Below are positions 46,740-61,148 of a stretch of 64,000 nucleotides of DNA, piece after piece. Made by a program: the position numbers and the translations under genes. Origin of the DNA: Candidatus Obscuribacter phosphatis (GTDB lineage Bacteria; Cyanobacteriota; Vampirovibrionia; Obscuribacterales; Obscuribacteraceae). The stretch spans positions 21,966 through 85,965 of the forward strand of contig MOYA01000002.1 of NCBI GenBank assembly GCA_001899315.1, read 5' to 3'. The notes under the pieces were generated by a model. That model was given only the letters and a program-made list of their open reading frames with translations, searched no databases and was not told the origin of the DNA. Within the stretch, counting starts at the first letter, position 1. Every line of letters begins with the position of its first letter.

Positions 46740-46825
46740 GCTCCGAGTTACTTTGAACCTATCTAAATCGTCACTGGCACTATCTCCGAGTCACTTTGAA
46801 CCTGTGAGAATCGTCCCTAAGGCGG
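46740..46825. repeat. 43-bp duplication of the kinase gene's 3' end
   Basis: The last 13 or so codons plus stop of the kinase gene at 46780 (minus strand, GGTTCAAAGTGACTCGGAG) recur downstream as GGTTCAAAGTAACTCGGAG after 43 bases. The copy is outside the reading frame's stop and carries several differences. Upstream of it at 46650-46740, GCGCCGATTTGGT-type units also repeat. Confidence 0.85.
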
Positions 46826-49596
46826 GGATGAAATGCTCTGTACTGCTTGTCTAGCTTTTGGCATTGCTTGTCCGACCAAGCGGTCATAACGATTTCAAGC
46901 TCTTCCGGCAGAGCGATGGCTGCTTTGCTCAGTGCTTCGGGTTTGAGCCAGTCGGGTAGCTGTGCATCCGAAACTATGATCTTCAGGCTCTTTACGCCGT
47001 AGATAGCAGTTGTTTCAATGGGGCAGTCCTTCAGGCGGCAATCTTTCAAGCTTAGGCGCTCAAGCTTGGCACTGTGGCTAAGAAAGTGAAAGGTGCGCTC
47101 ATTCAGTTCGCAGTTGATGAATTCTATCGAAGTCGGTATGGCTTTTAGTTTTGTTCGGACAAGATTGTTGTTGACCAGATCGCCATAGGTTCTAGAGGGA
47201 TGACGTTCATTGATATCGGATAATCTGATACCCGGCAAATGGGCGCCCTCTACGGCGAAATAGGTTAGTCCTGGAGGTACTGAAACCGGCATGCTGGCTC
47301 GAGAATTGACGTGATAGATGAGAAATTGTAGATTCTGAAATTTTGGCAGTAGCTCGGTGAATTTGCTGATTTCGCCGGGCGCTTCAACCGGTATGCGCAG
47401 ATAGCGAGTTTGTTTGGTACAGGCTTCAGTTAGCCAGCGCAGCTCGGTTTCGGCTGTCTTTACCGCTGTCATGTCTAAGCCGCCTATCTTCTCGGTCGGC
47501 AACTCGGCGCATATTATGTTTAGGGTCGAGTCGCTCAGCGGTTTGATTAATAGGGTGTTTTTCTCTAGTTTCTCCAGTTTCTCTAGAGATATTTGGCTCG
47601 GATTTTGCATTGGCTGAATAGCAATGAATGAGGGCTCCTGCTCGGCAGCTTTCAAGACGGCAAACTGGGCCACGGAGGTGAGTGATGCTTGCGGAAGAAC
47701 GGCATCGTGGCTCTCGGGGCTTTTGCTCTGGCTCTCAGAGCTTTCTAAGGCATTATCCTGCCTCTGGTTTGTGAGGTTGTTGCCTGCACCCCGGCTTGTG
47801 GTGTCACCAGTAGTGTCGCCGACCAATTCTTTTCTTTTGTCCTTGTCTTTGCTTGTACTTGCACTTGTGCTTGTACTTGATTGAATATGAGTACTGCTCT
47901 GTCTGCTGTTCTTCTTTGAATCATTGCTTAGGTTGAAGAGCAAGAGATAAACAGCGGCGAAGCTCAAGAAAACCACCGCAAGCAAGGCTGAGAGAAATAT
48001 CTTCAGATCTGGCGCCAGGCTTTGCAATGGAAGTTCTTTCCGCTTTTGCGCGTCTGCTTGGCTGCTCGCGCCGGAGCGGGGTGAAGATTGTTCGGCATCA
48101 AGGTACTTGTCTTTTGGCTGAGAGAAGCGACGTCCCTCTTCCAGCACTTTGAAATGCTCTAAGGTATACTGTAGCGGTTTCTTGGCCAGGGCCAGCTCTA
48201 GGTCGGCGGCTAGCTCTGCGGCACTCTGATAACGATGATCGGGCTTCTTCTCAAGGCATTTTGCAATTATTGCTTGAATAGAAAGGGGGAAGTAGATGCC
48301 GGTGGGTGCCTCTAAAGATGGTGGCAGTGTGTTTAAATGCGCATGGCGTAATTCTTCAAAGGACTGCTCTAGAAACGGTGGCGCTCCCACCAGGGTCTCG
48401 AATATTACGCAACCAAGGCTGTAGATATCTGATCGGCGGTCTACGGCGTCGCCAACAAACTGTTCAGGGCTCATATAAGAAGCGCTGCCGATAATGTCTG
48501 CCTGCTTGAGGACACCTTTGGGCTGTAGACCGTTACTGTTTGGTTCACTGTCCAAACCTTGCCCTTGTGATTCTCTCGCTGATTCAGCTAGGTCGGCGAT
48601 ACCAAAATCCAGAATCCTTATTTCGATAGTGTTGCTTGAGCCAGTTATCATCAAATTAGCGGGCTTTAGATCTTTATGAACTACGTTGCGTTTATGAGCA
48701 TAGTTGAGACCTTCGCAGACTTTAATAAACAGTTCGAGTGTGGCGCCAACTGAAAGAGGTCCATGCTTCACAATGGTGTTTTCCAGAGTAGCCCCCTCTA
48801 CAAAGTCCATGCAGTAATAGGGGACTGTCTCGTTATGGATGCCTAAATCATAAACTTGGCAGATTGTCTGATGCTGCATTGTAGAAACAAGCTTGGCTTC
48901 TTTTTGAAACAGAAACCAGGTGCGTGGGGTAATCATGCTGGGTAGGAGAAATTTGACTGCGCATAGCCTTCCCAGAACTGTATGTCGAGCTTTGTAGACC
49001 GAACCCATGCCACCTTGTCCGGCCAAGTCAATCAGTTCATAGCATCCACCAATAATCTGGCCTGGAGCCAGTTCCGCCATCGCTATGGTGGCTTGGGCCT
49101 GGTTAGCTCTTGCTGTCTGCATAGCGGTTTTAAGGCTGGTGCGCTTGCTAAGCAGCTCTCCGCCATGATATCGGGTTTCCAGTCCAGCCAGATTTTGCCG
49201 CCTGTAATCATCAGAGTCTTCATAAACAGCTACATGAGCCGGCGCCTGGGCTTTTGATGAATAGTCGGGTTTGTTCCTTTCAAGCAGGGGTTTGCGGCAC
49301 TGGCACCGCTGATCCTTGAAGAAAAAGGCTGTGATACTGCCTGTACGCTCTACCGTCGGTATTAACTTTAAACAGCGTTGACAAATGCTGCTTTGCTCTC
49401 CTGTGCGGCTTTTGGATTTCTCAAGCGGTTTTTCCTTTATAGATTCATGCGCTTGTGTCGAGCTCTCTTCGCACTGACAACTTAGATCACTTAGCAAAAA
49501 GCTGGTGAGTGATCCCCGCCGTTCTGCCAGAAGGCGACGTCTGCCACATCTGGAGCAGATGTTTTCAACGCCCTTATTCTCGTCAGTCTTGTTCAA
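46780..49596 (-). CDS. transmembrane Ser/Thr kinase with two zinc modules and LRR-like tail
   Basis: 938 residues from a TTG at 49596. Two copies of a cysteine module open the protein: Cys14/17...40/42 and Cys72/75...98/100, with the constant GS[LIM]T[SA]F core. The kinase domain (about 185-450) has GQGGMGSVYKA, AVKFLLP, the loop VVHKDLKPAN (Lys in place of the HRD Arg), DFGIAD and SPEQ. A membrane helix follows near 530-550, then a Ser/Thr-rich linker and an external domain with LRR-like motifs (AKLERLSLKDCRLKDCPIE). It probably links an outside signal to cytoplasmic phosphorylation. It is paralogous to the kinase at 53759-56317. Confidence 0.9.
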   Translation of the reverse strand: MNKTDENKGVENICSRCGRRRLLAERRGSLTSFLLSDLSCQCEESSTQAHESIKEKPLEKSKSRTGEQSSICQRCLKLIPTVERTGSITAFFFKDQRCQCRKPLLERNKPDYSSKAQAPAHVAVYEDSDDYRRQNLAGLETRYHGGELLSKRTSLKTAMQTARANQAQATIAMAELAPGQIIGGCYELIDLAGQGGMGSVYKARHTVLGRLCAVKFLLPSMITPRTWFLFQKEAKLVSTMQHQTICQVYDLGIHNETVPYYCMDFVEGATLENTIVKHGPLSVGATLELFIKVCEGLNYAHKRNVVHKDLKPANLMITGSSNTIEIRILDFGIADLAESARESQGQGLDSEPNSNGLQPKGVLKQADIIGSASYMSPEQFVGDAVDRRSDIYSLGCVIFETLVGAPPFLEQSFEELRHAHLNTLPPSLEAPTGIYFPLSIQAIIAKCLEKKPDHRYQSAAELAADLELALAKKPLQYTLEHFKVLEEGRRFSQPKDKYLDAEQSSPRSGASSQADAQKRKELPLQSLAPDLKIFLSALLAVVFLSFAAVYLLLFNLSNDSKKNSRQSSTHIQSSTSTSASTSKDKDKRKELVGDTTGDTTSRGAGNNLTNQRQDNALESSESQSKSPESHDAVLPQASLTSVAQFAVLKAAEQEPSFIAIQPMQNPSQISLEKLEKLEKNTLLIKPLSDSTLNIICAELPTEKIGGLDMTAVKTAETELRWLTEACTKQTRYLRIPVEAPGEISKFTELLPKFQNLQFLIYHVNSRASMPVSVPPGLTYFAVEGAHLPGIRLSDINERHPSRTYGDLVNNNLVRTKLKAIPTSIEFINCELNERTFHFLSHSAKLERLSLKDCRLKDCPIETTAIYGVKSLKIIVSDAQLPDWLKPEALSKAAIALPEELEIVMTAWSDKQCQKLDKQYRAFHPRLRDDSHRFKVTRR

Positions 49597-49661
49597 GTTC
49601 TTGAGGTTATATCCTGTGCTGAATTGCTAAAATCAATTGATATTCGTTTGGGGTTCATCTT

Positions 49662-50630
49662 TTGAGCAGATTAGACCGCGCTTTTACATTTTTCCCTGCC
49701 AGTGAAATCGAAACCTTGAGCCCCTATGCCTTTATCGAATTTGCTTTGCGATTAAGGCTCTTTCGAACATTTCGCGAAAGCCATCTAAGAAAAGTTCATT
49801 CAAGAAAAGGCTATTCAAGAAAAGGCTATTCATTAGCTTTGTGCGCGCTCCTAATTCTTTACACTCTCTCAATTATTTCATTTTTTCACGCAGCTTATGC
49901 ATCTCCGCCGCCTCCTCCTCAATCAACGAAAGCTAGATTGTCTGGTGCAACAGAAACTAGCCAGGCGCTTGAGTTGTTGGCCAGGACAAGTCAGTTTGGT
50001 ATCGCTCGCTATTTGATTTCTAAAGATGCTGTATCAGTGATAACCTTTACCGGTTCAACCGTTTGGCGGAAGAACATGCCTGATAAGGTGATTATGGTTC
50101 GCCCTGAGAATAAGATTTTCCTTGAAACCACTAGGAAGGATTGGATTAACTGGGCTAGGCGGGGCATTGACCTGGTAAAAATCAAACATGTAGAGAAAGT
50201 TGGTGTCGAGAATCTGTGCGGTAGGACGGTCGAGCACTATAAGGCCTTTGAGACTGAAGTCCCCATTAAGTCAAAGCCGAGTGCAGAGTTTTGGACGATT
50301 CCAGGTAATTCATTCAACGATGCTGTACTTAAGTACTGGTGCGATATGCTTGATTTGCCCACGAAATATGGCTTCCCAATAAAGGTGAAACAGAGGCATG
50401 AAGGGCAGTTTGTCACTATGGTCAATCCTACCTCTCTCAAGATTGTTACCAGCAAGACTTCAGACTTCGCGGCGCCAGCCGGCTACCGCAAAGCAAGGGA
50501 CCTGGCTGCCTTTTATTTTTCTGAGAGCGGAGATGAATTACAGTCTTCGGATTTAACTGACCTATTTATGTACGAAAAAAGAGGCAGCGATAGGGATTTG
50601 GTTAAGCCTGTGGGAGAAAAGGATAAGTGA
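49662..50630 (+). CDS. secreted LolA/DUF4412-like protein
   Basis: 322 residues from a TTG at 49662 with a weak binding site. The N-terminus is long; a hydrophobic signal segment lies at about residues 58-80, before APPPPPQST, after repeated RKGYSRKGYS units encoded by a DNA repeat. The mature part is beta-rich and resembles LolA-type or DUF4412 folds (ISKDAVSVITFTGSTVWRKNMPDKVIMVRPENKIFL, FPIKVKQRHEGQFVTMVNPTSLKIV, FAAPAGYRKARDL). It may bind lipid or a hydrophobic ligand in the periplasm. It is divergent from the kinase by 65 bases and overlaps the HEAT gene by four bases (GTGA). Confidence 0.68.
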   Translation: MSRLDRAFTFFPASEIETLSPYAFIEFALRLRLFRTFRESHLRKVHSRKGYSRKGYSLALCALLILYTLSIISFFHAAYASPPPPPQSTKARLSGATETSQALELLARTSQFGIARYLISKDAVSVITFTGSTVWRKNMPDKVIMVRPENKIFLETTRKDWINWARRGIDLVKIKHVEKVGVENLCGRTVEHYKAFETEVPIKSKPSAEFWTIPGNSFNDAVLKYWCDMLDLPTKYGFPIKVKQRHEGQFVTMVNPTSLKIVTSKTSDFAAPAGYRKARDLAAFYFSESGDELQSSDLTDLFMYEKRGSDRDLVKPVGEKDK

Positions 50631-52384
50631 GGGGGGTGGGTAGCCAAGCGGAGGAGTTAAGGCTTCAAATTTTGAACTGCCTTGATTCTATGGGTAAAAA
50701 CAAACCGATATCGGCTTGTTTTTACCCTTTAGATGCCGTCGTGCAAAGCGTAAATAGAAGAAGAGCCCGACTTCTGATTTTGCAGACAATTGAAGAATGC
50801 TCTTCGCTGCCAGCGGATGCCTTGTCTGTGTTGACTTTTGAAATGGCAATGCTTGCACTGAGTGATGATCCTTCTATTTCGGAGGGAGCGAACGGTCAAT
50901 TAGAAAGGCTCTTTGCCTTTGTCGGCAAGCAAAGACTGACGCAAGAGCTCTCTAGTCTTGAGCGCGTGTTTAGGACTTCATGGTGCCCTCCTGGTGAACA
51001 GTTCTCTTTGTCGGCAGACCTTGCCATACCTACGGTAGGGCTCATGTCTTTGTCTCGAAACGGCTATCTGCGCGAGGCGGCTGTGCGGCGCCTAATAGAA
51101 AGTGGAGATTGCTCGGTTATTCCATTTCTTTTGCTGCGTCTACGAGACTGGGTCGTGAAAGTTCGCGATCTTGCGCTTAGCGGTCTTGGAGCGGTCTTGC
51201 AAAACAAAAGTAGAGATGCCTCAGTCCTTGAAGAATTGGCGCGCAGTCTCCCTTTGTTATTTCTTTTGGAGCGCAGTCCGAAGTGCTCAGCAAGCATGGA
51301 TTTGATTACTGATTTATGCAGAGAAGCTGTTCAGTTTGATAGCAAAAGTGCAATAGAATTAGTTTTGAGTGGTGTTCAATGTTCTTCTTGGTTGGCCAAG
51401 CTAGTCTTGGAGCATTGCTTGGCAGATAGTTTCCTGCCCCTTCTTCACTGTGAAGATGAAAGAATCGCTATGATGGCTTTCAATTCCATCAGATCGGTAG
51501 GCGAATCCGGCAATTTGATTGAGTTGGGCATAGATGACTTTCCCGCTTTGTTGCGTGAGCTATTCTCAAGCAAGCATACAGAGTTAAGAGTTGAAGCCTT
51601 GCGGAGTTATTTTGCAGGATTTTCCGCTAACAGGTCTGACGAACTCGCCGAGGTGTTAAAGGAGTCATTGTTTAGTGAGCGAGCTGGAGTGCGTGCGCTG
51701 GCTCAATATCTCCTCAAGGGCGAGAATATTGAAATGCTTTTCCGGGCTAGGCTTCAAAATCTTAGTCATAGGCTGGATCAGTTTGAAGAAGTGAAGGTCA
51801 GCGAATTGGTCGTCTGCCTTTCCTGTATGAAACAGTTCGGCTTGACCGTTGAAAATGAAGAGATGTTGGAGCCGTTGCTGATGCACAGCTCAGCTTCTGT
51901 GCGAGCGGCAGCCTTTGAGGTGGCTTTGTTTCAGTGTCTGAATCGGGGTCAAGAGGACCAATTCCTTGCTTTCCTATATAGATGTCTGGAGGATGGATCT
52001 GGAAAATGCATTAAGGTTGCCATCAAGCATCTGGATAGCAAATTTGCCGTCGATTTCAAACGAGTAGCTGGCTATATTCAAAGAGAGCCGCTTGCCAAAA
52101 GATCTCTCAAGTTGATGCCTCATCTTTCCAAGCTTGATTTTTGGCAAGCCCTTTCTTTGCTGCTTTTTTCATTCAATGCTGCATGCCTTGACGACTCCGA
52201 TGATGCGAAAAAAAGAATTGTAGTTTGTCTTGATAATTGGCTGAGGAAGAGAAATTCTTCCTTTGTCAGGCCAAATCAAGAAGCCGTTCAGCGCGCGCGC
52301 GCCGCATTTAACCGTTTTGGCAAGAACTTGTCTGAGAGTCTGAGAGTTCCGCTGGAAGCGGTTTTGGCGCAAGAGCAGTCTTAG
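50627..52384 (+). CDS. HEAT-repeat protein
   Basis: 585 residues from a GTG at 50627 that overlaps the previous stop (GTGA), with AAGG upstream. The sequence is a helical solenoid with HEAT-like units (YLREAAVRRLIESGDCSVIPFLLLRLRDWVVKVRDLALSGLGAVL, AGVRALAQYLLKGENIEML). No signal or membrane segment. It probably binds a protein partner; coupling to the secreted neighbour is not explained. The 36-base palindrome at 50692-50727 is part of its coding sequence near the N-terminus (NKPISACF). Confidence 0.8.
   Translation: MRGVGSQAEELRLQILNCLDSMGKNKPISACFYPLDAVVQSVNRRRARLLILQTIEECSSLPADALSVLTFEMAMLALSDDPSISEGANGQLERLFAFVGKQRLTQELSSLERVFRTSWCPPGEQFSLSADLAIPTVGLMSLSRNGYLREAAVRRLIESGDCSVIPFLLLRLRDWVVKVRDLALSGLGAVLQNKSRDASVLEELARSLPLLFLLERSPKCSASMDLITDLCREAVQFDSKSAIELVLSGVQCSSWLAKLVLEHCLADSFLPLLHCEDERIAMMAFNSIRSVGESGNLIELGIDDFPALLRELFSSKHTELRVEALRSYFAGFSANRSDELAEVLKESLFSERAGVRALAQYLLKGENIEMLFRARLQNLSHRLDQFEEVKVSELVVCLSCMKQFGLTVENEEMLEPLLMHSSASVRAAAFEVALFQCLNRGQEDQFLAFLYRCLEDGSGKCIKVAIKHLDSKFAVDFKRVAGYIQREPLAKRSLKLMPHLSKLDFWQALSLLLFSFNAACLDDSDDAKKRIVVCLDNWLRKRNSSFVRPNQEAVQRARAAFNRFGKNLSESLRVPLEAVLAQEQS
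50692..50727. repeat. CCGATATCGG palindrome, copy 6 (inside a gene)
   Basis: A 36-base inverted repeat with one mismatch: GGGTAAAAACAAA, CCGATATCGG, then CTTGTTTTTACCC. It lies 66 bases into the HEAT gene, read as ..AAA CCG ATA TCG GCT... The mismatch is at the same position as in copy 4. Confidence 0.92.
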
Positions 52385-52499
52385 AAATTTTGACCTGGTC
52401 CGAACATCTAACCTTAAATCTGCAAAAAAGATTGAACTTTTTGGCTCGTTCTTACGTATATAGCTTGGAAGGTTTTTGAATTGAAGTTGGGAGTAGCTT

Positions 52500-53732
52500 A
52501 TGCCGTCAAGTCGAGTGTGGGATTTTAGCGGTGCATATAGAGTCAGGCTCTTATGGGCGTTCACAGTAGCACTGACAGTAAATAGTTTTCTGGTCATGAA
52601 TGAGGCTTTGGCGGTCCGCAGTGCTTCTGTTTCGCAGGCTAATGAAAGTAGCAATGCAGCTTCTGTGGAAGTGGTTTACCAAGCCTGGCTTGATCGCAAA
52701 CGTTATCGGGAGATCCCGGTCAAGATTTATATGCCTAAGCATTCCAGTACGGCTGCGCCTGTTGTTGTGTTTTCTCACGGACTGGGTGGTTCGCGTGAAG
52801 CCGCGGTTTATCTTGGTGAAGCTTTGGCTGAGCATGGTTATGTCTCTGTGCATATCCAGCATCCTGGCAGTGACGAATCTCTCTGGAAGACTGGTGATGG
52901 TAAGGGGCTGAAAGAATTCTTGCAATCAAGAAAAGGCGGGGGTGATAGATCTTCCTTGCTGGCTCGGTTAGGCTCTCCCGGCGGGCTTGGTTCCGGCGGG
53001 CTTGGTTCCGGCCGTTTTGGATCAGGCGGCGGACTAGGGGCCTCTGGTGGGTTTGGTTCACAGGGCGCGGGCAATCGTTCTGAACTGGTCGCCGCCATAA
53101 GGTCAAAGATTGGCAAAGGCGCAAGCGGCGAGAATCTCAAGTTGCGTGCAGAAGATGCGATTTTCGTTCTGGATGAATTAGCTCGTCGCAATGATAACGA
53201 TGCCGTTTTGAAAGGACGTCTTGATCTGAATAAGATAGGCATGGCAGGTCATTCTTTTGGCGCGCTCACGACTATGGCTATGGCTGGGCAGAATTTCGCA
53301 ATTGGTAATGTCAGTAAATCAGTGGCTGATCCCAGAGTGAAGGCGGCGATTTATCTCAGTCCGCCGGTGAATTTGCACGGCAGAGAAGCCACTGATGTAT
53401 ACGGCAAGATCAAGATACCCGGCATGTTGATGACTGGTACAGAAGACAACTCGCCTATCGGCGAAACTAAGGCAGAAGACAGACCGCTTCCGTTCTATGC
53501 AATCAGAGCTGGTGAGCAGTATCTGGTTAACTTCGAGGGTGGCACCCATTCTATGTTTGGCGGCAGAAGTAAGACAGTCAGCGCCGAAGCAAAACAAGGG
53601 CATGAAATGATCAGTCGGCTCTGCATTGCTTTCTTTGATGCTTATCTATGCGGCGATACGCAGGCTAAGAATTGGTTGAAGCAAGACGCCGGAAAGTATC
53701 TTGGCTCAAGGGCAAAGTATGAGTTTCATTAG
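52500..53732 (+). CDS. secreted alpha/beta hydrolase (PAF-acetylhydrolase/DLH-like) with Gly-rich insert
   Basis: 410 residues; the ATG at 52500 follows TTGGGAG. The N-terminal signal covers about residues 1-38. Hydrolase motifs: VVVFSHGLGGSREAAVYLGEALAEHGYVSVHIQHPGSDES (oxyanion), the nucleophile elbow AGHSFGA, an acid in MTGTEDNS and the His in EGGTHSMFG. A Gly/Ser/Leu-rich insert (about 160-190, GGLGSGGLGSG) is encoded by tandem repeats. The substrate is probably an ester of lipid or polymer type. It ends 26 bases from the convergent kinase gene. Confidence 0.82.
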   Translation: MPSSRVWDFSGAYRVRLLWAFTVALTVNSFLVMNEALAVRSASVSQANESSNAASVEVVYQAWLDRKRYREIPVKIYMPKHSSTAAPVVVFSHGLGGSREAAVYLGEALAEHGYVSVHIQHPGSDESLWKTGDGKGLKEFLQSRKGGGDRSSLLARLGSPGGLGSGGLGSGRFGSGGGLGASGGFGSQGAGNRSELVAAIRSKIGKGASGENLKLRAEDAIFVLDELARRNDNDAVLKGRLDLNKIGMAGHSFGALTTMAMAGQNFAIGNVSKSVADPRVKAAIYLSPPVNLHGREATDVYGKIKIPGMLMTGTEDNSPIGETKAEDRPLPFYAIRAGEQYLVNFEGGTHSMFGGRSKTVSAEAKQGHEMISRLCIAFFDAYLCGDTQAKNWLKQDAGKYLGSRAKYEFH

Positions 53733-53758
53733 TCTTCATGCCGTGCCATGATCTCAAT

Positions 53759-56317
53759 CTAGTAGGCGCTTGGATTTTGATATAGCGATACATCGGTATT
53801 AGGCATGAGCTTTTGCAGAATTTCTACAAAGTCTTGGTCTCGGCCTTCCAGATAGTCTTTCGCTGTCACTTTCATTTTGGTTAATCTGCTTAGCTGCGCT
53901 ATTTTGTTGAGCGGCATGCCAGTGGTGGTTTTGAAGGCGAGAGAAAGATATTCCACTTTAGTCAGCCTGGAAAAATCTAATTGATCTGCTGAGGGTAAGT
54001 CGCAGAAAACTAGATCTAAGCTCCGCAGATAGGGCGATTCTGAAAGCAAATAGATTTCCTTTTGACTGAGGGTTGCCTTGTAAAAGCGAAGAGAACCCAG
54101 TCGCGGGCATTTCGCTACTACCTTCAGCAGTTCGGCTAGATTGCCGGCGTTGCCTGCAACTTCTAATTGAAATAGATGCAGCTTTTCTAGCTGCTCTAGA
54201 CCTGCCAAGTTCATACCGCCGGCGCTCGAATTGTAGAGGCTTAGTCGAGACAGTTTTTGAAACTCGCCGTTCAGATCTTTCTTTAGTATCGGCAAAGCTT
54301 GCGGCGGTAAAGAGAGAGTCCGCAAATTCTTGAGTGACTTTAACTTCTTTTCTAGTTGGCTTAAATCCAGCGGGGTGCCGGAATCCTTCTCTAATTGCAA
54401 ATTGCGCGAATTTATAAAGACGCCGAAGATATCATCCGGTTTGAAGGAGTCGATGGTCTTAAGCAGATATCTGTAATCGCCGTTTATTTCTTTGAGCGAT
54501 AGACCTTGCCCTTTCTGTAATTCGATTCTGTCTATGCCCTGGGGCAGATAAGTAATTATTGTTCCTTCTTCATTGCAGACATTGACCAGTCCGGGTGTTT
54601 GGTTGTTCTTGAAGAAATAGCTCATGGCGCCGTTTTCGTTCTTCTTCGAAGTCACTTGCAGTTCTTTGCTGGGCACAGTCTCAAAGACGTCAATGAAGTC
54701 TGAATCTAATTTTGAGACCTTCTGATGAGTTGATCTAGTATCTGAGGATGCCGACTTTTCTTTTTGCTTTTGAGCTGCAGTATTTTCTGAATTTGTGTTT
54801 CCTAAATCTATGTACATTTGACCGGCTAAACGCCCACCAGCGGTGTCGCTGCTGATAATCTCGTTGTCGAGCTTTATGCGAAACTTCTTGCTTGGTTGTG
54901 AAAAGAGAATACCGGTGAGAATGAGAGAATTGAAGCCGATGAGCAAAAGACTTACTCCGGTAAACAGTATGATTTTGCCTGTTCTTGGCTTGTTGATACT
55001 GCTAAATAAATCTTTCTCTTCTATTTGGGTATATTTGGCGAACTGTAATGGCTTTCCTTCAAGCAGCCGCAGCAGATCTATCGATAATTCGCTGACGCTC
55101 TGATAGCGCTGATCTGGTGATTTCTGCAGACATTTACTCAAAATTGCTTCTAGTTCTTCGGGAAATTCAACACCGCTTGCTTCGCTCAAGCTGGGAATGG
55201 CTTCTTTCAGATGCAGCTTGCCGAGCAATTCGAATTCGTATTCATCGAAGGGCGGGTGTCCGACCAAAGTTTCGTACATAGAACAGCCGAGGCTGTAGAT
55301 ATCGCTGCGCTGGTCGAGACTTTTGCCGGTGAACTGCTCTGGGCTCATATAAGGGGCGCTGCCTACCACCTCGTCTTTAGTCAGTCCGGCTGTTTCGCTT
55401 AGTTCTGATATACCAAAGTCTAGAATCTTTACCTCGGGATTATCGCCGCGAATTCCCAGCATGAGGTTGGCCGGCTTTAGATCTTTGTGAATGATGCCGC
55501 GCCTGTGGGCATACGATACACCTTCGCAAACTTTTAGAAAAAGTTCTATCGTTGCACCAACCGATAACGGTCCGTTTGTATCGAGTAAACTTTCCAGCGT
55601 AAAGCCTTCGACATAGTCCATGGCATAGTAGGGCAGGTTGACTTCGCCGTCGGCGCCGCCTCCCGATAGATTGAGCCTGGCAATGCCCAAATCGTAGATA
55701 TGACAGATGGTTTGGTGCTGCAAGCTGGCTAGAATCTTGGCTTCATTCTTGAAGAGTTTCCAACTCGATTCTGAAATTACCGAAGGCGAAAGCAGCTTGA
55801 TGGCGCATTTGCGCCCCAGGGTTTGATGTTTGGCTTTAAAGACCGAGCCCATACCGCCTTGACCGGCTAGGCTGATGAGCTCGTAGCAACCGCCAATCAC
55901 CTGTCCTGATTGCAAAGCAGCCATTGCTGCTGCTTCTTGCGCTGCTTCCAGGGTCTTAAGTGAAAAGCGGGTTTTAATGGCGGTGCGCACTTGGGTTGAG
56001 CGATCGCGCCCGCGTTTGGCTGCTCGCTTGCTGGTTAGGTTTGGATTAGGACAGCTGCAGCGACTTTCTTTGAAAAAGAAGCTGGTCATGCTGCCCGGCA
56101 TAGATGTAGCCGCGTAGACCTTGCCGCAGCGGCGGCAGATTTCGGCAAGGTTGGCTGCCCGCGCCGGCTTGACAAAGCTAGCTTGCCCTATGCTTTCGCC
56201 TTGGTCGCAACTGCAACATAGGTCTGACAGCAAAAAAGAAGTCAAGCTGCCGCCTCTGCCCTCTTTTACTTTAGGCTTGCGGCAGCGTTCGCATATGACT
56301 CTTTCTTGCTCTTTCAA
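53759..56317 (-). CDS. transmembrane Ser/Thr kinase with two zinc modules and LRR tail
   Basis: 852 residues from a TTG at 56317 (AGGG 9 bases upstream). Two cysteine modules: Cys9/12...35/37 and Cys61/64...87/89, identical in spacing to those of the kinase at 46780. The kinase domain (about 145-420) has GQGGMGSVFKA, CAIKLLSP, IIHKDLKPANLM, DFGISE and SPEQ. A membrane helix near 450-475 (IILFTGVSLLLIGFNSLILTGIL) leads to an external LRR-type domain (about 620-840; LEQLEKLHLFQLEVAG, SPYLRSLDLVFCDLPSADQLDF). It probably senses an outside ligand. It is divergent from the pseudokinase gene. Confidence 0.9.
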   Translation of the reverse strand: MKEQERVICERCRKPKVKEGRGGSLTSFLLSDLCCSCDQGESIGQASFVKPARAANLAEICRRCGKVYAATSMPGSMTSFFFKESRCSCPNPNLTSKRAAKRGRDRSTQVRTAIKTRFSLKTLEAAQEAAAMAALQSGQVIGGCYELISLAGQGGMGSVFKAKHQTLGRKCAIKLLSPSVISESSWKLFKNEAKILASLQHQTICHIYDLGIARLNLSGGGADGEVNLPYYAMDYVEGFTLESLLDTNGPLSVGATIELFLKVCEGVSYAHRRGIIHKDLKPANLMLGIRGDNPEVKILDFGISELSETAGLTKDEVVGSAPYMSPEQFTGKSLDQRSDIYSLGCSMYETLVGHPPFDEYEFELLGKLHLKEAIPSLSEASGVEFPEELEAILSKCLQKSPDQRYQSVSELSIDLLRLLEGKPLQFAKYTQIEEKDLFSSINKPRTGKIILFTGVSLLLIGFNSLILTGILFSQPSKKFRIKLDNEIISSDTAGGRLAGQMYIDLGNTNSENTAAQKQKEKSASSDTRSTHQKVSKLDSDFIDVFETVPSKELQVTSKKNENGAMSYFFKNNQTPGLVNVCNEEGTIITYLPQGIDRIELQKGQGLSLKEINGDYRYLLKTIDSFKPDDIFGVFINSRNLQLEKDSGTPLDLSQLEKKLKSLKNLRTLSLPPQALPILKKDLNGEFQKLSRLSLYNSSAGGMNLAGLEQLEKLHLFQLEVAGNAGNLAELLKVVAKCPRLGSLRFYKATLSQKEIYLLSESPYLRSLDLVFCDLPSADQLDFSRLTKVEYLSLAFKTTTGMPLNKIAQLSRLTKMKVTAKDYLEGRDQDFVEILQKLMPNTDVSLYQNPSAY

Positions 56318-56406: not shown

Positions 56407-58545
56407 ATGAATGACCCCTCCCCAACCGATCTTGAAAAGGCGAAAGAATCCCAGCGCTTGGCGGCTGCGCCTTTTGATGCCGATGCTTGCAAAGAGTCGA
56501 AAGTAGAGTCGCCGCAGTTAGAGCTACTAATTCATGAAGATCAGTCTTCGACAAGCCAAGGGTTTCAATCGTCTTTCTTGGCTGAGGTTTCAATCGAGCA
56601 ACCTGTTATTGATCAGCCTGTTCTTGATCAGCCCGCTCTTGAGCAGGATTCTTCTGAGCAAGCTTCTGGGCAGAGTGGCGAGCAACTGCAGTTTTTGCTA
56701 GCCCGTCTAGATTTGCTCTTTGAAAAGAGGCTGACGAGCGGGCGAATAACTGAGACTTATCTGGTCAAAAAGAGAGCAGAGCCTCGCTCTCTCGTTTTGC
56801 GTGTACTTAAACCTCCTTTTTTGGCAGATCCTACAGTCAGACGTCGTTTTGAAAGAGTCTATACTTCTCTTTCTAGGCTCAATCATCGCTCGATAATGCC
56901 GGTCTTTGCTGGTGGGCTTGCCACCGCCGCCGGTGAAGCTAGTGCAGGCGTAACCAATGCCGGCGTAGGCAGTGACTTAGGGAGAGGATCTGCTGCCGGC
57001 TTCGTTTATCTTTTGCTGCCCTATCATAGGCGCAGTCTCAAGTTGGTTCTCAAGCAATTGGGGCGCTTTCAAGAGAAAACTTCACTGCAGCTGCTGTGTG
57101 AAATTGCCCAAGCCCTTGCTTATGCCCATGAGCATGGTATCGTACATGGTGGCATCGAGCCCGATGATGTCTTTCTCAAAGCTGCCATAGATAAAGATAA
57201 TAGCTTAGAAGTTATCGTTTCCGATTTTGGCATGAATCGAGTCGGCGCCGATGCCGTGGCGCCGGGTGCCCAGGTGGGCACCGGTGAATCTTTCGGCAGT
57301 GTGCGTTATATGAGCCCCGAGCAATGTCGCGGGCAAAAGCCTGATGCCCGCTCCGATGTTTACTCGCTTGCTTGTCTGGCTTTTGAAATGCTCACCGGTG
57401 AAGTTGTCTATGCCATGGGTAGTCAGCTTGAGGCAATGCTCTCGCAAGCTGAAATGGAGCGAGATTTGCTGATTGAGCGCTTGCGCAGCAGCGGTGTTTC
57501 TGAAGGCACGATTGAACTTCTCGCGTCTATGTTGGCACGCGAGAGCAAAGATCGGCCGGCCGATATGAAAGTGGTGGCCGCTCGTCTCAAAGCTCTTTGG
57601 CAAGCGGCTCCGTCCGGCGACGTTTCTCTGGGAGAGCTTCTTGCTGCACGAGATCCAGATGATTCGAAGGGCGAGCCCGCGCCGGTTGTCTCCGGTGGAA
57701 AATGGCTTTCGCTTGGTGTTGTCCTTGCCGCCGCTGTCTTTCTTTTTGCGGTTTTGCCGGCACTCTGTCTGCTTTTCATTGAGCTGGTCGGCGGGGCGTC
57801 TGCACCAGAGCCATCGCCGGTGCAAAGTCGCGAGTTTCAAGAGAAGCTCAGGCAGGCGCGTGGTCTGGCAGAGTTCCTCAAGAACAGCGATTCAGGACCT
57901 TTCACAAGAGAGCGCTTTGCCTCCATCGCCAGACAGATAACCAGCCAACTCTTGCAAGAACTGCAATCTGAAGATGAGGGGCGTCGCTGCGAGGCGGCGT
58001 CTCTCTTGGCGCGCCCAGTGCTGCGCTTGAAGGAGAGCAACAGCTTTGCCCAAGATGTGTGGATCTTGCGGCAGGCGCTCACTTATTTGAGAGAGCCTCG
58101 TCACTATGCTGCTTTATTTGATGCTGCCGCCACCGAAAATAATAGCCAAGCAAGAAAACAGTTGTTATTGGTTCTTGGTTTTCTTGCCGCCAATGATGAT
58201 TTCGCCGCTAATTACTTGCTCGAAGCCGCCGATAGCGGTGGCGCCCAGGCTCTTCTGCCGGCGCAAATCTCTGCTGCCTACCGCGAATCTTTCCCAGACA
58301 AACCTATGGGCAATCTTGAATTTGGTTTGCTTGAGATTTTGCAAACCACTTCTAATCAAGCCTTAATCGACTCTATCACTGAATCGTTTATGCAAACCGG
58401 CGGCGTCGATTCGCCGGATTGTCTGGATGTATTGCAGAGTTTGCAAGGGCATAGAAATTTGAAGATCGCTCTGATGGCTCAGCAGCGTCTGAAGGCGGCG
58501 AATGCTCGCAATGTGCAGAATGCTCGAAACGGGCAGGGTCAATAA
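56407..58545 (+). CDS. transmembrane pseudokinase with HEAT-like tail
   Basis: 712 residues from the ATG at 56407. The first 90 residues are acidic and repetitive (VIDQPVLDQPALEQ). A kinase fold follows (about 95-400), but key residues are changed: the beta-3 lysine is replaced (LVLRVLK), and the catalytic loop reads VHGGIEPDDVF where HRD...N is expected. DFG is kept (VSDFGMN) and SPEQ follows. It is therefore probably a pseudokinase. A membrane helix (about 430-460) leads to a helical, HEAT-like C-terminal domain. It may regulate the neighbouring active kinases. The alkyltransferase-like gene starts two bases after its stop region. Confidence 0.85.
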   Translation: MNDPSPTDLEKAKESQRLAAAPFDADACKESKVESPQLELLIHEDQSSTSQGFQSSFLAEVSIEQPVIDQPVLDQPALEQDSSEQASGQSGEQLQFLLARLDLLFEKRLTSGRITETYLVKKRAEPRSLVLRVLKPPFLADPTVRRRFERVYTSLSRLNHRSIMPVFAGGLATAAGEASAGVTNAGVGSDLGRGSAAGFVYLLLPYHRRSLKLVLKQLGRFQEKTSLQLLCEIAQALAYAHEHGIVHGGIEPDDVFLKAAIDKDNSLEVIVSDFGMNRVGADAVAPGAQVGTGESFGSVRYMSPEQCRGQKPDARSDVYSLACLAFEMLTGEVVYAMGSQLEAMLSQAEMERDLLIERLRSSGVSEGTIELLASMLARESKDRPADMKVVAARLKALWQAAPSGDVSLGELLAARDPDDSKGEPAPVVSGGKWLSLGVVLAAAVFLFAVLPALCLLFIELVGGASAPEPSPVQSREFQEKLRQARGLAEFLKNSDSGPFTRERFASIARQITSQLLQELQSEDEGRRCEAASLLARPVLRLKESNSFAQDVWILRQALTYLREPRHYAALFDAAATENNSQARKQLLLVLGFLAANDDFAANYLLEAADSGGAQALLPAQISAAYRESFPDKPMGNLEFGLLEILQTTSNQALIDSITESFMQTGGVDSPDCLDVLQSLQGHRNLKIALMAQQRLKAANARNVQNARNGQGQ

Positions 58546-58909: not shown

Positions 58910-59054
58910 GTTTTTGCTGCTTTCTTGCTTGGCTTGCGTCAGTCTGGATTCTAACTTGCGTCAAACTTAAGCCTGAGTTGAGGTTGAGTTAATTTATCAC
59001 GGGCTTTGATTGTGTACCCTAGGCACATTCAGCCTTAAGTTTGGGAGAATTTCG

Positions 59055-61148
59055 ATGAGTATATCTGGCGTAGCAGTCGGGAATGTCAAGCGCTCCGTCT
59101 TGAGATCTTCCTTTCCCTTGGCATGTTTGGCTTTGAGTCTGGTAATCACTAGCCCGGCTGTTCAGTCTAAACCGACTGCCTCGCCGACCAAGTCGAATCT
59201 TTCCCCCCGCACTACCGGTGGTGCGGGTGTCTCGCAGTCAGCTGCCCGTGCTTTGCCCCTTGGCACCAAAGTGGCCAATCACGGGTTTCGGGACCGTCTA
59301 TTTAAAGGCAAGCTTTCAGCCGATGTCACAAACGGTGAAAAACTTCTTTTGGCAGGCAAATATGCAGAAGCGCAAGAGGCCTTTCGCCAGGGCATAAACA
59401 AAAACTCTAAGGACACTGCTGCCGTCACTGGTATGGGCTTGGCTCTGGTGCTGCAGTTCAAGCTTGATGCCGCTGATGAAAAATTCGCTCAAGCCCTCAA
59501 GCTCGACTCAAAGATGCCTATGGCTCATGTCGGCCAGGCTCTTTCCAAGCTATACCGGCTGCAGACATCAAACATGAATGTCTTGCAGCAGCGCAACGGC
59601 ATGCTCAGTTCTGCTGAAGCTTCTTGCCGCACGGCTCTGCGTTTGGACCCCAAACTGGCCGAAGCTTACATAGTTCTTGGCCAGGTGCAGAAAGAGCAGG
59701 GTCGGCTCAATGAGGCGCGTTCTTCTTTGAGCCAGGCAATCGGCATGGATTCGCAATATGGTACGGCATTTGTGCAGCGCGGCCTGATTGAACTCAAAAC
59801 CGGCGATATAGCCCAGGCAATCAGCGATTTCAGCGAAGCCATTTCGCTGAAATCAAGCAATGCCGCAGCTCACTATGGGCTTGGTTTAGCCTACCTCAAG
59901 CAAGGTCAGCTTGATGACGCTCAAAAGTCTCTCAATACCTCTATATCTCTCAATAAAAATAGCGCCCCGGCTCACATTGCCATGGGTGATGTTTATCGCC
60001 TGCAAGGTAATCGAGTCGCTGCCGTCAATGAATATCAGAAAGCAATCAGCATCAAGGCTGAAAGTGAAGAAGCGTATTTGCGCATGTCCGACATCAGAGA
60101 AATGCGCGGTGACCTAGAATTGGCTCTGGCTGATGTTCGCTCTGGTTTGGCTCTTGCTCCCAACAGTGTCGACCTGCATCGCCGCGCCGCCGACATCGCC
60201 TTAAAGCTTGAGAAAATGGACGATGCCATGAAAGAGTACTCGCTGGTCTTGCAATATCAACCCGGTGACGCAGCCGCCGTTAAAGGCATGACTCGCGCCC
60301 TTGTGCTCAAGGCGCAGAAAGACGCCGACGGTGCCTTTTTCTTATCTAACAACTATGAGTCTGCCGAAGGTCTCATTCAGCAGGCTATTCAGATGAACCC
60401 CAATGACATGGAGCTGCGCCTGGCTGATGCTAAGCTGCGGGCAATGTCGGGCAAACCGGTTGACTTGACTCAACTGGGCACACCGACCAATGACGCCGAG
60501 CGTATAGCTTTCGCCGAAGCGGCTCTGGCTCAGTTTAAATATCAGGAAGCCGGTCAAGCAATGCAGACCGTTATCGCCAATTGCACCACAGCCGAGCAGG
60601 CTTTTTCGGTGGGCGATATGGCATTGATGATTCGCGATCTTGACAGCGCCGAAGCTGCATACAAGAGAGCCTCGAGCTTTGGTAGCGGCGAGAAAGCCGA
60701 CAGCCAAGACGTATCGGCTCGCGCCACACGCAGTCTTTACAGGGTTAGCCAGGCTCGCGATAAAGCACAGCAAGAGCTGACCATGGCCAAAGACCTGGCA
60801 AGCAAGAAGCAGTATCCTTCCGCTATTGATAAATTCAGAAATGCCGCCTATCTCAATCCGCGTCAAAGCCAGGCTCATCTAGGGCTGGCCGAGACCCTCG
60901 AGAAGCTATTCAAGAATAAGGCGCCATCAATGAGGGAAGCGGCTTTGCATTACCGCGCTTATGTCAGTCTTGAACCAAATATGCCCGAGAAGCAACAAGA
61001 AAAGTTTGCTAAGAAAGCAGACAAGTGCGATGAGATCGCTTACAAAATTGAGCAAGGCAAGCCGCCCAGCAAGCTTTCCGCCGTGTTTGCCCCCTTCGGT
61101 ACTTTTGCCTCTAAGGTAGAGAACGGCATCAAAGAGTTGGTGAAATAA
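59055..61148 (+). CDS. secreted TPR protein, large
   Basis: 697 residues from the ATG at 59055 (TTGGGAG upstream); the frame's earlier start at 59010 lacks support. Signal peptide about residues 1-40. About twelve TPR units span 75-440 and again near 590-650 (AEAYIVLGQVQKEQGRLNEARSSLSQAIGMDSQYGTAFVQRGLIELKTGDIAQAISDF). It is likely periplasmic. The stop overlaps the start of the C26 peptidase gene (TAATG), giving a coupled operon of TPR, C26 and GNAT genes. Scaffolding for an envelope process is the best guess. Confidence 0.85.
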   Translation: MSISGVAVGNVKRSVLRSSFPLACLALSLVITSPAVQSKPTASPTKSNLSPRTTGGAGVSQSAARALPLGTKVANHGFRDRLFKGKLSADVTNGEKLLLAGKYAEAQEAFRQGINKNSKDTAAVTGMGLALVLQFKLDAADEKFAQALKLDSKMPMAHVGQALSKLYRLQTSNMNVLQQRNGMLSSAEASCRTALRLDPKLAEAYIVLGQVQKEQGRLNEARSSLSQAIGMDSQYGTAFVQRGLIELKTGDIAQAISDFSEAISLKSSNAAAHYGLGLAYLKQGQLDDAQKSLNTSISLNKNSAPAHIAMGDVYRLQGNRVAAVNEYQKAISIKAESEEAYLRMSDIREMRGDLELALADVRSGLALAPNSVDLHRRAADIALKLEKMDDAMKEYSLVLQYQPGDAAAVKGMTRALVLKAQKDADGAFFLSNNYESAEGLIQQAIQMNPNDMELRLADAKLRAMSGKPVDLTQLGTPTNDAERIAFAEAALAQFKYQEAGQAMQTVIANCTTAEQAFSVGDMALMIRDLDSAEAAYKRASSFGSGEKADSQDVSARATRSLYRVSQARDKAQQELTMAKDLASKKQYPSAIDKFRNAAYLNPRQSQAHLGLAETLEKLFKNKAPSMREAALHYRAYVSLEPNMPEKQQEKFAKKADKCDEIAYKIEQGKPPSKLSAVFAPFGTFASKVENGIKELVK

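What the first reader, a model, noticed from the sequence alone, without database searches (positions are those of the whole stretch)
46780..56317. Strictly spaced duplicated cysteine module in two transmembrane kinases
Four copies (two per kinase) fit C-x2-C-x10-GS[LIM]T[SA]F followed by [LF][LF][SK][DE]-x2-C-x-C without a single length change. The constant GS.T.F core is unlike common rubredoxin-type ribbons. Pairs of modules precede HKD-type kinase domains and external LRR domains. It may be an undescribed zinc-binding or dimerisation domain specific to this lineage.
Basis: seen in the sequence. Interest (0 to 1): 0.65.

Follow-up and report, generated by a model that had tools for sequence, protein, structure and literature searches.

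The report
Unnamed cysteine module in Obscuribacter receptors
Two neighbouring membrane kinases carry, at the end inside the cell, a pair of tiny four-cysteine modules that are in no domain library, are found only in one order of non-photosynthetic cyanobacterial relatives, and also sit on membrane proteins without any kinase, which suggests a reusable metal-held interaction part rather than a piece of the kinase.

Summary
They are not chance: the profile finds all 16 copies in the genome, in 8 of about 93 kinase domains, at E 1e-8 to 1e-15. The window fits Candidatus Obscuribacter phosphatis.

"Strict spacing" fails in the wider family. The first loop is 5-11 residues (mostly 9 or 10), and the last gap is 6 or exactly 3. 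The cysteines and the core Thr are the invariant part.

No Pfam model reaches its cut-off on the module, and no PDB chain matches its sequence profile or predicted fold. It was found only in Obscuribacterales. It expanded to dozens of copies per genome, and a tree forces at least three changes of module state across kinase branches.

It is not kinase-specific. Five intact proteins in four genomes carry the double module, a linker, one TM helix and an LRR, PDZ-TPR or Sel1 ectodomain, with no kinase. The most likely reading is a Zn(Cys)4 knuckle pair acting as a cytoplasmic interaction or oligomerisation tail that kinase-bearing and kinase-less receptors share. Zinc binding and interaction are inferred. 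A redox switch, as reported for cyanobacterial SpkB, is the main rival.

The parts
46780..49596 (-). K1: membrane Ser/Thr kinase, 938 aa (TTG start), modules M1+M2 - linker - kinase - TM - ectodomain
49471..49557 (-). K1 module M1, CSRCGRRRLLAERRGSLTSFLLSDLSCQC
49297..49383 (-). K1 module M2, CQRCLKLIPTVERTGSITAFFFKDQRCQC
48226..49041 (-). K1 kinase domain (aa 186-457), HKDLKPAN and DFG present
   Evidence: Pkinase E 4.7e-43
47938..47994 (-). K1 predicted transmembrane helix (aa 535-553)
   Evidence: hydropathy
53759..56317 (-). K2: membrane Ser/Thr kinase, 852 aa (TTG start), same architecture
56207..56293 (-). K2 module M1, CERCRKPKVKEGRGGSLTSFLLSDLCCSC
56051..56137 (-). K2 module M2, CRRCGKVYAATSMPGSMTSFFFKESRCSC
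55100..55885 (-). K2 kinase domain (aa 145-406)
   Evidence: Pkinase E 1.1e-46
54917..54973 (-). K2 predicted transmembrane helix (aa 449-467)
   Evidence: hydropathy
53858..54355 (-). K2 ectodomain stretch resembling leucine-rich repeats (aa 655-820, sub-threshold)
   Evidence: LRR_14 E 0.0012

Best explanation
Each module is a roughly 29-residue four-cysteine (CxxC ... CxC) metal-binding knuckle, most likely holding one Zn2+, with GSxTx[F/W] capping a short helix whose exposed aromatic/aliphatic face makes contacts. Two modules in tandem form the cytoplasmic N-terminus of single-pass receptors in Obscuribacterales. The pair acts as an interaction or oligomerisation tail, separable from the kinase: it brings receptors together or to a shared partner, so an ectodomain signal leads to kinase-kinase contact and activation. 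Kinase-less receptors with the same tail could act as partners or dampeners. Shown: sequence, architecture, distribution, conservation, and existence of kinase-less forms. Inferred: zinc, helix surface role, interaction and signalling mechanism.
For: All four Cys and the core Thr are invariant over 69 aligned modules; the ten module residues invariant over 40 double-module proteins include all eight Cys. Two CxxC/CxC pairs in a cytoplasmic segment (same side as the kinase, one TM) fit a metal site better than disulphides. AF2 gives a short helix just after GSxT in both models, at moderate confidence (pLDDT 73 and 77). The only length change after GSxTx[FW] is almost always exactly 3 residues (6 to 3; 31 of 168 modules), about one helical turn. 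Five intact proteins in four genomes keep the double module and TM but have no kinase, with LRR, PDZ+TPR or Sel1 ectodomains, so the module works without a kinase in cis. It sits on several separate kinase branches: starred branches force at least 3 changes of module state. M1 and M2 keep separate identities, nearest neighbour in the same class for 70/78 M1 and 64/78 M2, as for two non-equivalent surfaces.
Against: No metal or binding data. Kinase-less forms are few (5, against 108 kinase-bearing) and could be losses. Three of the five have no kinase gene within about 6-8 kb, as far as the fetched stretch reaches, so no gene pairing supports co-receptor action.
Confidence: 0.5

Rival explanations
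1. [quoted passage not shown]
For: A 2023 paper states that SpkB activity is modulated by redox changes through its Cys-rich N-terminal extension, targeted by thioredoxin (PMC10651672). SpkB is from the same phylum; the cysteines are invariant.
Against: Kinase-less proteins keep the same module, where there is no kinase to switch in cis. The conserved GSxTx[FW] core is not explained by thiol chemistry alone. Homology to the SpkB motif was not tested.
Confidence: 0.2
2. Intramolecular kinase regulation: the pair packs on the kinase domain (autoinhibition, or docking of substrates for this kinase only).
For: 108 of 114 distinct module proteins have the module N-terminal to a kinase domain.
Against: Kinase-less carriers; linkers to the kinase of about 14-100 residues that vary widely in length and sequence; module found on different kinase branches.
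Confidence: 0.15
3. It is a divergent version of an ordinary zinc ribbon with no special role beyond stabilising the N-terminus.
For: Weak Pfam hits are all zinc-finger or ribbon models through the CxxCGK knuckle; other kinases of this genome carry an ordinary N-terminal CxxC..CPxDG ribbon.
Against: Profile comparison with that ribbon aligns only the 11-residue first knuckle (probability 31%); the GSxTx[FW] core, helix and CxC are absent there; tandem M1/M2 identities are conserved.
Confidence: 0.12

Closest known systems
Small zinc ribbons of Pfam (Zn_Ribbon_1 PF13240, Zn_ribbon_3 PF13248, double zinc ribbon DZR PF12773)
   Same: Small tandem four-Cys units, first knuckle CxxCG
   Different: Second pair is CxC instead of CxxC; GSxTx[FW] core and short helix; only scattered hits, best E 3e-4 among 40 members
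Ordinary N-terminal zinc ribbon of bacterial Ser/Thr kinases (CxxC-x10-CPxDG), present on at least six other kinases of this genome
   Same: Place (N-terminal to kinase), likely metal-binding
   Different: Only the CxxC knuckle aligns; usually one copy; different second half
Cyanobacterial SpkB Cys-rich N-terminal extension
   Same: Cys-rich segment before a Ser/Thr kinase in the same phylum; redox-controlled (PMC10651672)
   Different: Sequence homology not tested here; no tandem GSxT core known to me
PknB-like single-pass bacterial receptor Ser/Thr kinases
   Same: Kinase domain (Pkinase, PknB_PASTA_kin over the catalytic part), one TM, ectodomain
   Different: LRR-like, TPR or Sel1 ectodomains instead of PASTA; extra cytoplasmic N-terminal module pair

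Membership tests
Bacterial membrane Ser/Thr (PknB-like) kinase | Pkinase domain with catalytic Lys, HxD, DFG | tested here: met
   Pkinase E 5e-43 and 1e-46; CAVK/CAIK, HKDLKPAN, DFG in both
Bacterial membrane Ser/Thr (PknB-like) kinase | Single TM with C-terminal ectodomain | tested here: met
   One strong hydrophobic segment each
Known zinc-ribbon family (Pfam) | Score above the family's curated cut-off | tested here: not met
   K1 module pair: best PF23545 13.5 bits against a cut-off of 27; over 40 members best E only 2.6e-4 to 5e-4
Known zinc-ribbon family (Pfam) | Two CxxC knuckles on a beta-ribbon fold | tested here: not met
   Second pair is CxC in all 69 aligned modules; model shows a short helix after GSxT; no PDB fold match, though model confidence is moderate
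Zinc-binding protein | Bound Zn2+ | not testable with these tools
   Only invariant Cys4 pattern
Ordinary kinase N-terminal ribbon (CxxC..CPxDG) | Whole-length profile similarity | tested here: not met
   hhalign aligns 11 of 33 columns, probability 31%
SpkB-type redox-regulated kinase | Homologous Cys motif; thioredoxin-reversible activity | not tested
   SpkB sequence not fetched; assay needed
LRR receptor kinase | LRR ectodomain above Pfam cut-off | tested here: inconclusive
   K2 sub-threshold, K1 none; relatives above cut-off, e.g. L133 LRR_6 and L135 LRR_4

The most novel reading that the evidence does not exclude
The module pair is an Obscuribacterales-specific cytoplasmic recognition tail shared by large sets of kinase-bearing receptors and by kinase-less co-receptors, with M1 and M2 as two different contact surfaces that determine which receptors pair: a bacterial analogue of receptor/co-receptor networks.
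Probability: 0.25. Interest if true: 0.65.

Novelty: new variant of a known kind. Interest (0 to 1): 0.42.

Why it matters
It defines an unnamed domain family with about 190 sequences in hand, absent from Pfam, NCBIfam and the PDB, and largely confined to one lineage with a very large kinome (about 93 kinase domains in 5.5 Mb here). The kinase-less carriers show that the module is an independent unit and make the receptor/co-receptor idea testable. A profile of it would help annotate Obscuribacterales signalling proteins.

Tried and rejected
Weak class hits (E 0.005-0.08) outside the order were mostly partial matches in short or stop-containing frames and were treated as chance. The kinase-less appearance of L131, L142, L193, L195, L201 and L209 was rejected as contig ends or frame breaks. 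Rows without the strict HxD pattern turned out mostly to have kinase domains by HMM. Fold searches of both models gave nothing. Literature searches found no description of the module (open-licence papers only).

Full report
WHERE. The window lies in an assembly of 5,494,645 bases in 8 contigs. Soo et al. 2014 list EBPR_351, Candidatus Obscuribacter phosphatis, as 8 scaffolds, 5.5 Mb, 49.4% GC (PMC4040986). The window has 48-50% GC. I infer this organism (order Obscuribacterales, non-photosynthetic relatives of cyanobacteria).

OBSERVATION. Both have a full Pkinase domain, one hydrophobic TM segment and a C-terminal ectodomain with at most weak LRR similarity in K2. The pattern is not chance: a 12-row profile finds 15 copies in the genome at E 1e-15 to 6e-12, then a drop to 0.59. 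A wider profile finds 16. They make eight double-module kinases out of about 93 kinase domains, counted from 95 Pkinase match pieces.

SPACING. The strict spacing is local. In the same genome one copy has x9 and one has an extra residue before CxC. Over 168 parsed modules the loop between CxxC and GSxTxF is 5-11 residues (101 with 9, 47 with 10), and the gap to CxC is 6 (136), 3 (31) or 7 (1). The F/W-to-CxC gap thus changes almost only by three residues. AF2 puts a short helix just after GSxT, so I read the 3-residue change as loss of about one helical turn (inference). The invariant columns over 69 modules are the four Cys and the Thr, with Gly nearly invariant; the aromatic is F, Y or W in most.

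NOT IN LIBRARIES. No Pfam model reaches its cut-off; scattered weak hits are zinc-finger models through the CxxCGK knuckle. NCBIfam shows only a weak RNA polymerase subunit P hit (E 0.37). PDB sequence hits are likewise confined mostly to the first knuckle. Fold searches of both models gave nothing, with the caveat that the models are of moderate confidence (pLDDT 73 and 77, pTM 0.38 and 0.36) and very small. The ordinary N-terminal ribbon of other kinases in this genome (CxxC-x10-CPxDG) aligns only over the first knuckle.

DISTRIBUTION. In 194 genomes of the class, nearly all convincing hits lie in the window's family (f1), plus one single-module kinase family in f2 of the same order. Copy numbers reach 59 matches (at E up to 0.01) in G127. 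A 386-genome draw of the phylum gave no further convincing carrier; its only other hit (G377, E 5e-4) is a partial match in a frame with a stop. A scan of one genome for each of about 85,000 species with the peptide pattern GS[LIF]TQ[WF][VI]F[RK] gave 48 loci, all in Obscuribacterales or MAGs labelled only as bacterium, Proteobacteria, Melainabacteria or Cyanobacteria. Two of the vaguely labelled ones match handles of family f1 by identical module sequences: Centralia_MAG_505 = G127 and RI_106 = G067. That scan covers only one sub-pattern, so rare outside carriers are possible.

MODULAR EVOLUTION. In 78 double-module proteins, M1 is nearest to another protein's M1 in 70 and M2 to another M2 in 64, so in most families duplication predates divergence. 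A quick kinase tree (108 rows) puts the modules on several branches: an F-type double clade with the window's kinases, a W-type clade, a g6 pair, and scattered singles. Well-supported branches force at least three changes of state for each label. Low-support forks make the exact number uncertain.

KINASE-LESS CARRIERS. Of 114 distinct module-bearing frames in the first set, 108 have the kinase; the other six comprise one false match, two truncations (L131, L142) and three true kinase-less proteins. A second set added two more. The five are L071 (340 aa, LRR-like by eye, no Pfam hit), L081 (482 aa, PDZ E 3e-11 and weak TPR), L143 (550 aa, LRR E 2e-11), L203 (502 aa, LRR E 4e-7) and L205 (452 aa, Sel1 E 1e-47). 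Each has two modules, a linker and one TM. L081 sits inside a 2.4-Mb contig of a 6-contig assembly, so it is not an assembly end. L213, L215 and L217 (holding L081, L203 and L071) show no kinase in the stretch fetched. The module is therefore a separable cytoplasmic tail.

MECHANISM. A four-Cys CxxC/CxC site in the cytoplasm most likely holds zinc. The conserved GSxTx[FW] helix start and the distinct M1/M2 identities look like recognition surfaces. Presence with and without kinases and with many ectodomain types (LRR-like, Sel1, PDZ/TPR) fits an oligomerisation or adaptor-recruiting tail. I give this 0.5. The redox-switch rival (0.2) rests on SpkB, whose Cys-rich N-terminal extension is reported as a thioredoxin target that modulates activity (PMC10651672). 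The original study was not held. Strictly kinase-internal regulation (0.15) is weakened by the kinase-less forms and the highly variable linkers.

CONSERVATION NEXT DOOR. In sister genome G083 the K1-K2 block is syntenic. K2 modules differ at 2 of 30 residues each, the kinase at 1 of 262, the ectodomain at 89 of 384. K1's 5' half lies in a stretch of about 2 kb that is 99-100% identical between the species, against roughly 85-95% around it, so K1 cannot be used for selection estimates.

VERDICT.

Noticed in passing
56407-58545 (+): A third kinase-like membrane protein, divergent from K2, has HGGIEPDD where HxDLKPxN is expected and matches Pkinase only from profile position 73: a probable pseudokinase without the module.
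   Followed up: partly
48276-50526: About 2 kb 99-100% identical to the syntenic region of another species in the genus (L218), flanked by about 85-95% identity: a recent recombination or conversion tract covering the 5' half of K1 and the start of the next gene.
   Followed up: partly
L163, L166, L168, L176, L182, L189: Other kinases of the same genome carry a different N-terminal ribbon, CxxC-x10-C-x2-D(G).
   Followed up: partly
whole genome G000: About 93 Ser/Thr kinase domains in 5.5 Mb, a very large bacterial kinome.
   Followed up: no
G000:C1:674949-683101 (L002, L003, L005): Three module-bearing kinases lie in tandem on one strand; a second local expansion besides K1/K2.
   Followed up: no
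linkers between M2 and the kinase, e.g. K2, L002, L006, L007: A short TRF/TRY-like motif recurs in the basic linker of F-type members; possibly a phosphorylation or docking site.
   Followed up: no
59010-61148 (+): A TPR-repeat protein with a possible N-terminal signal segment, downstream of the pseudokinase.
   Followed up: no
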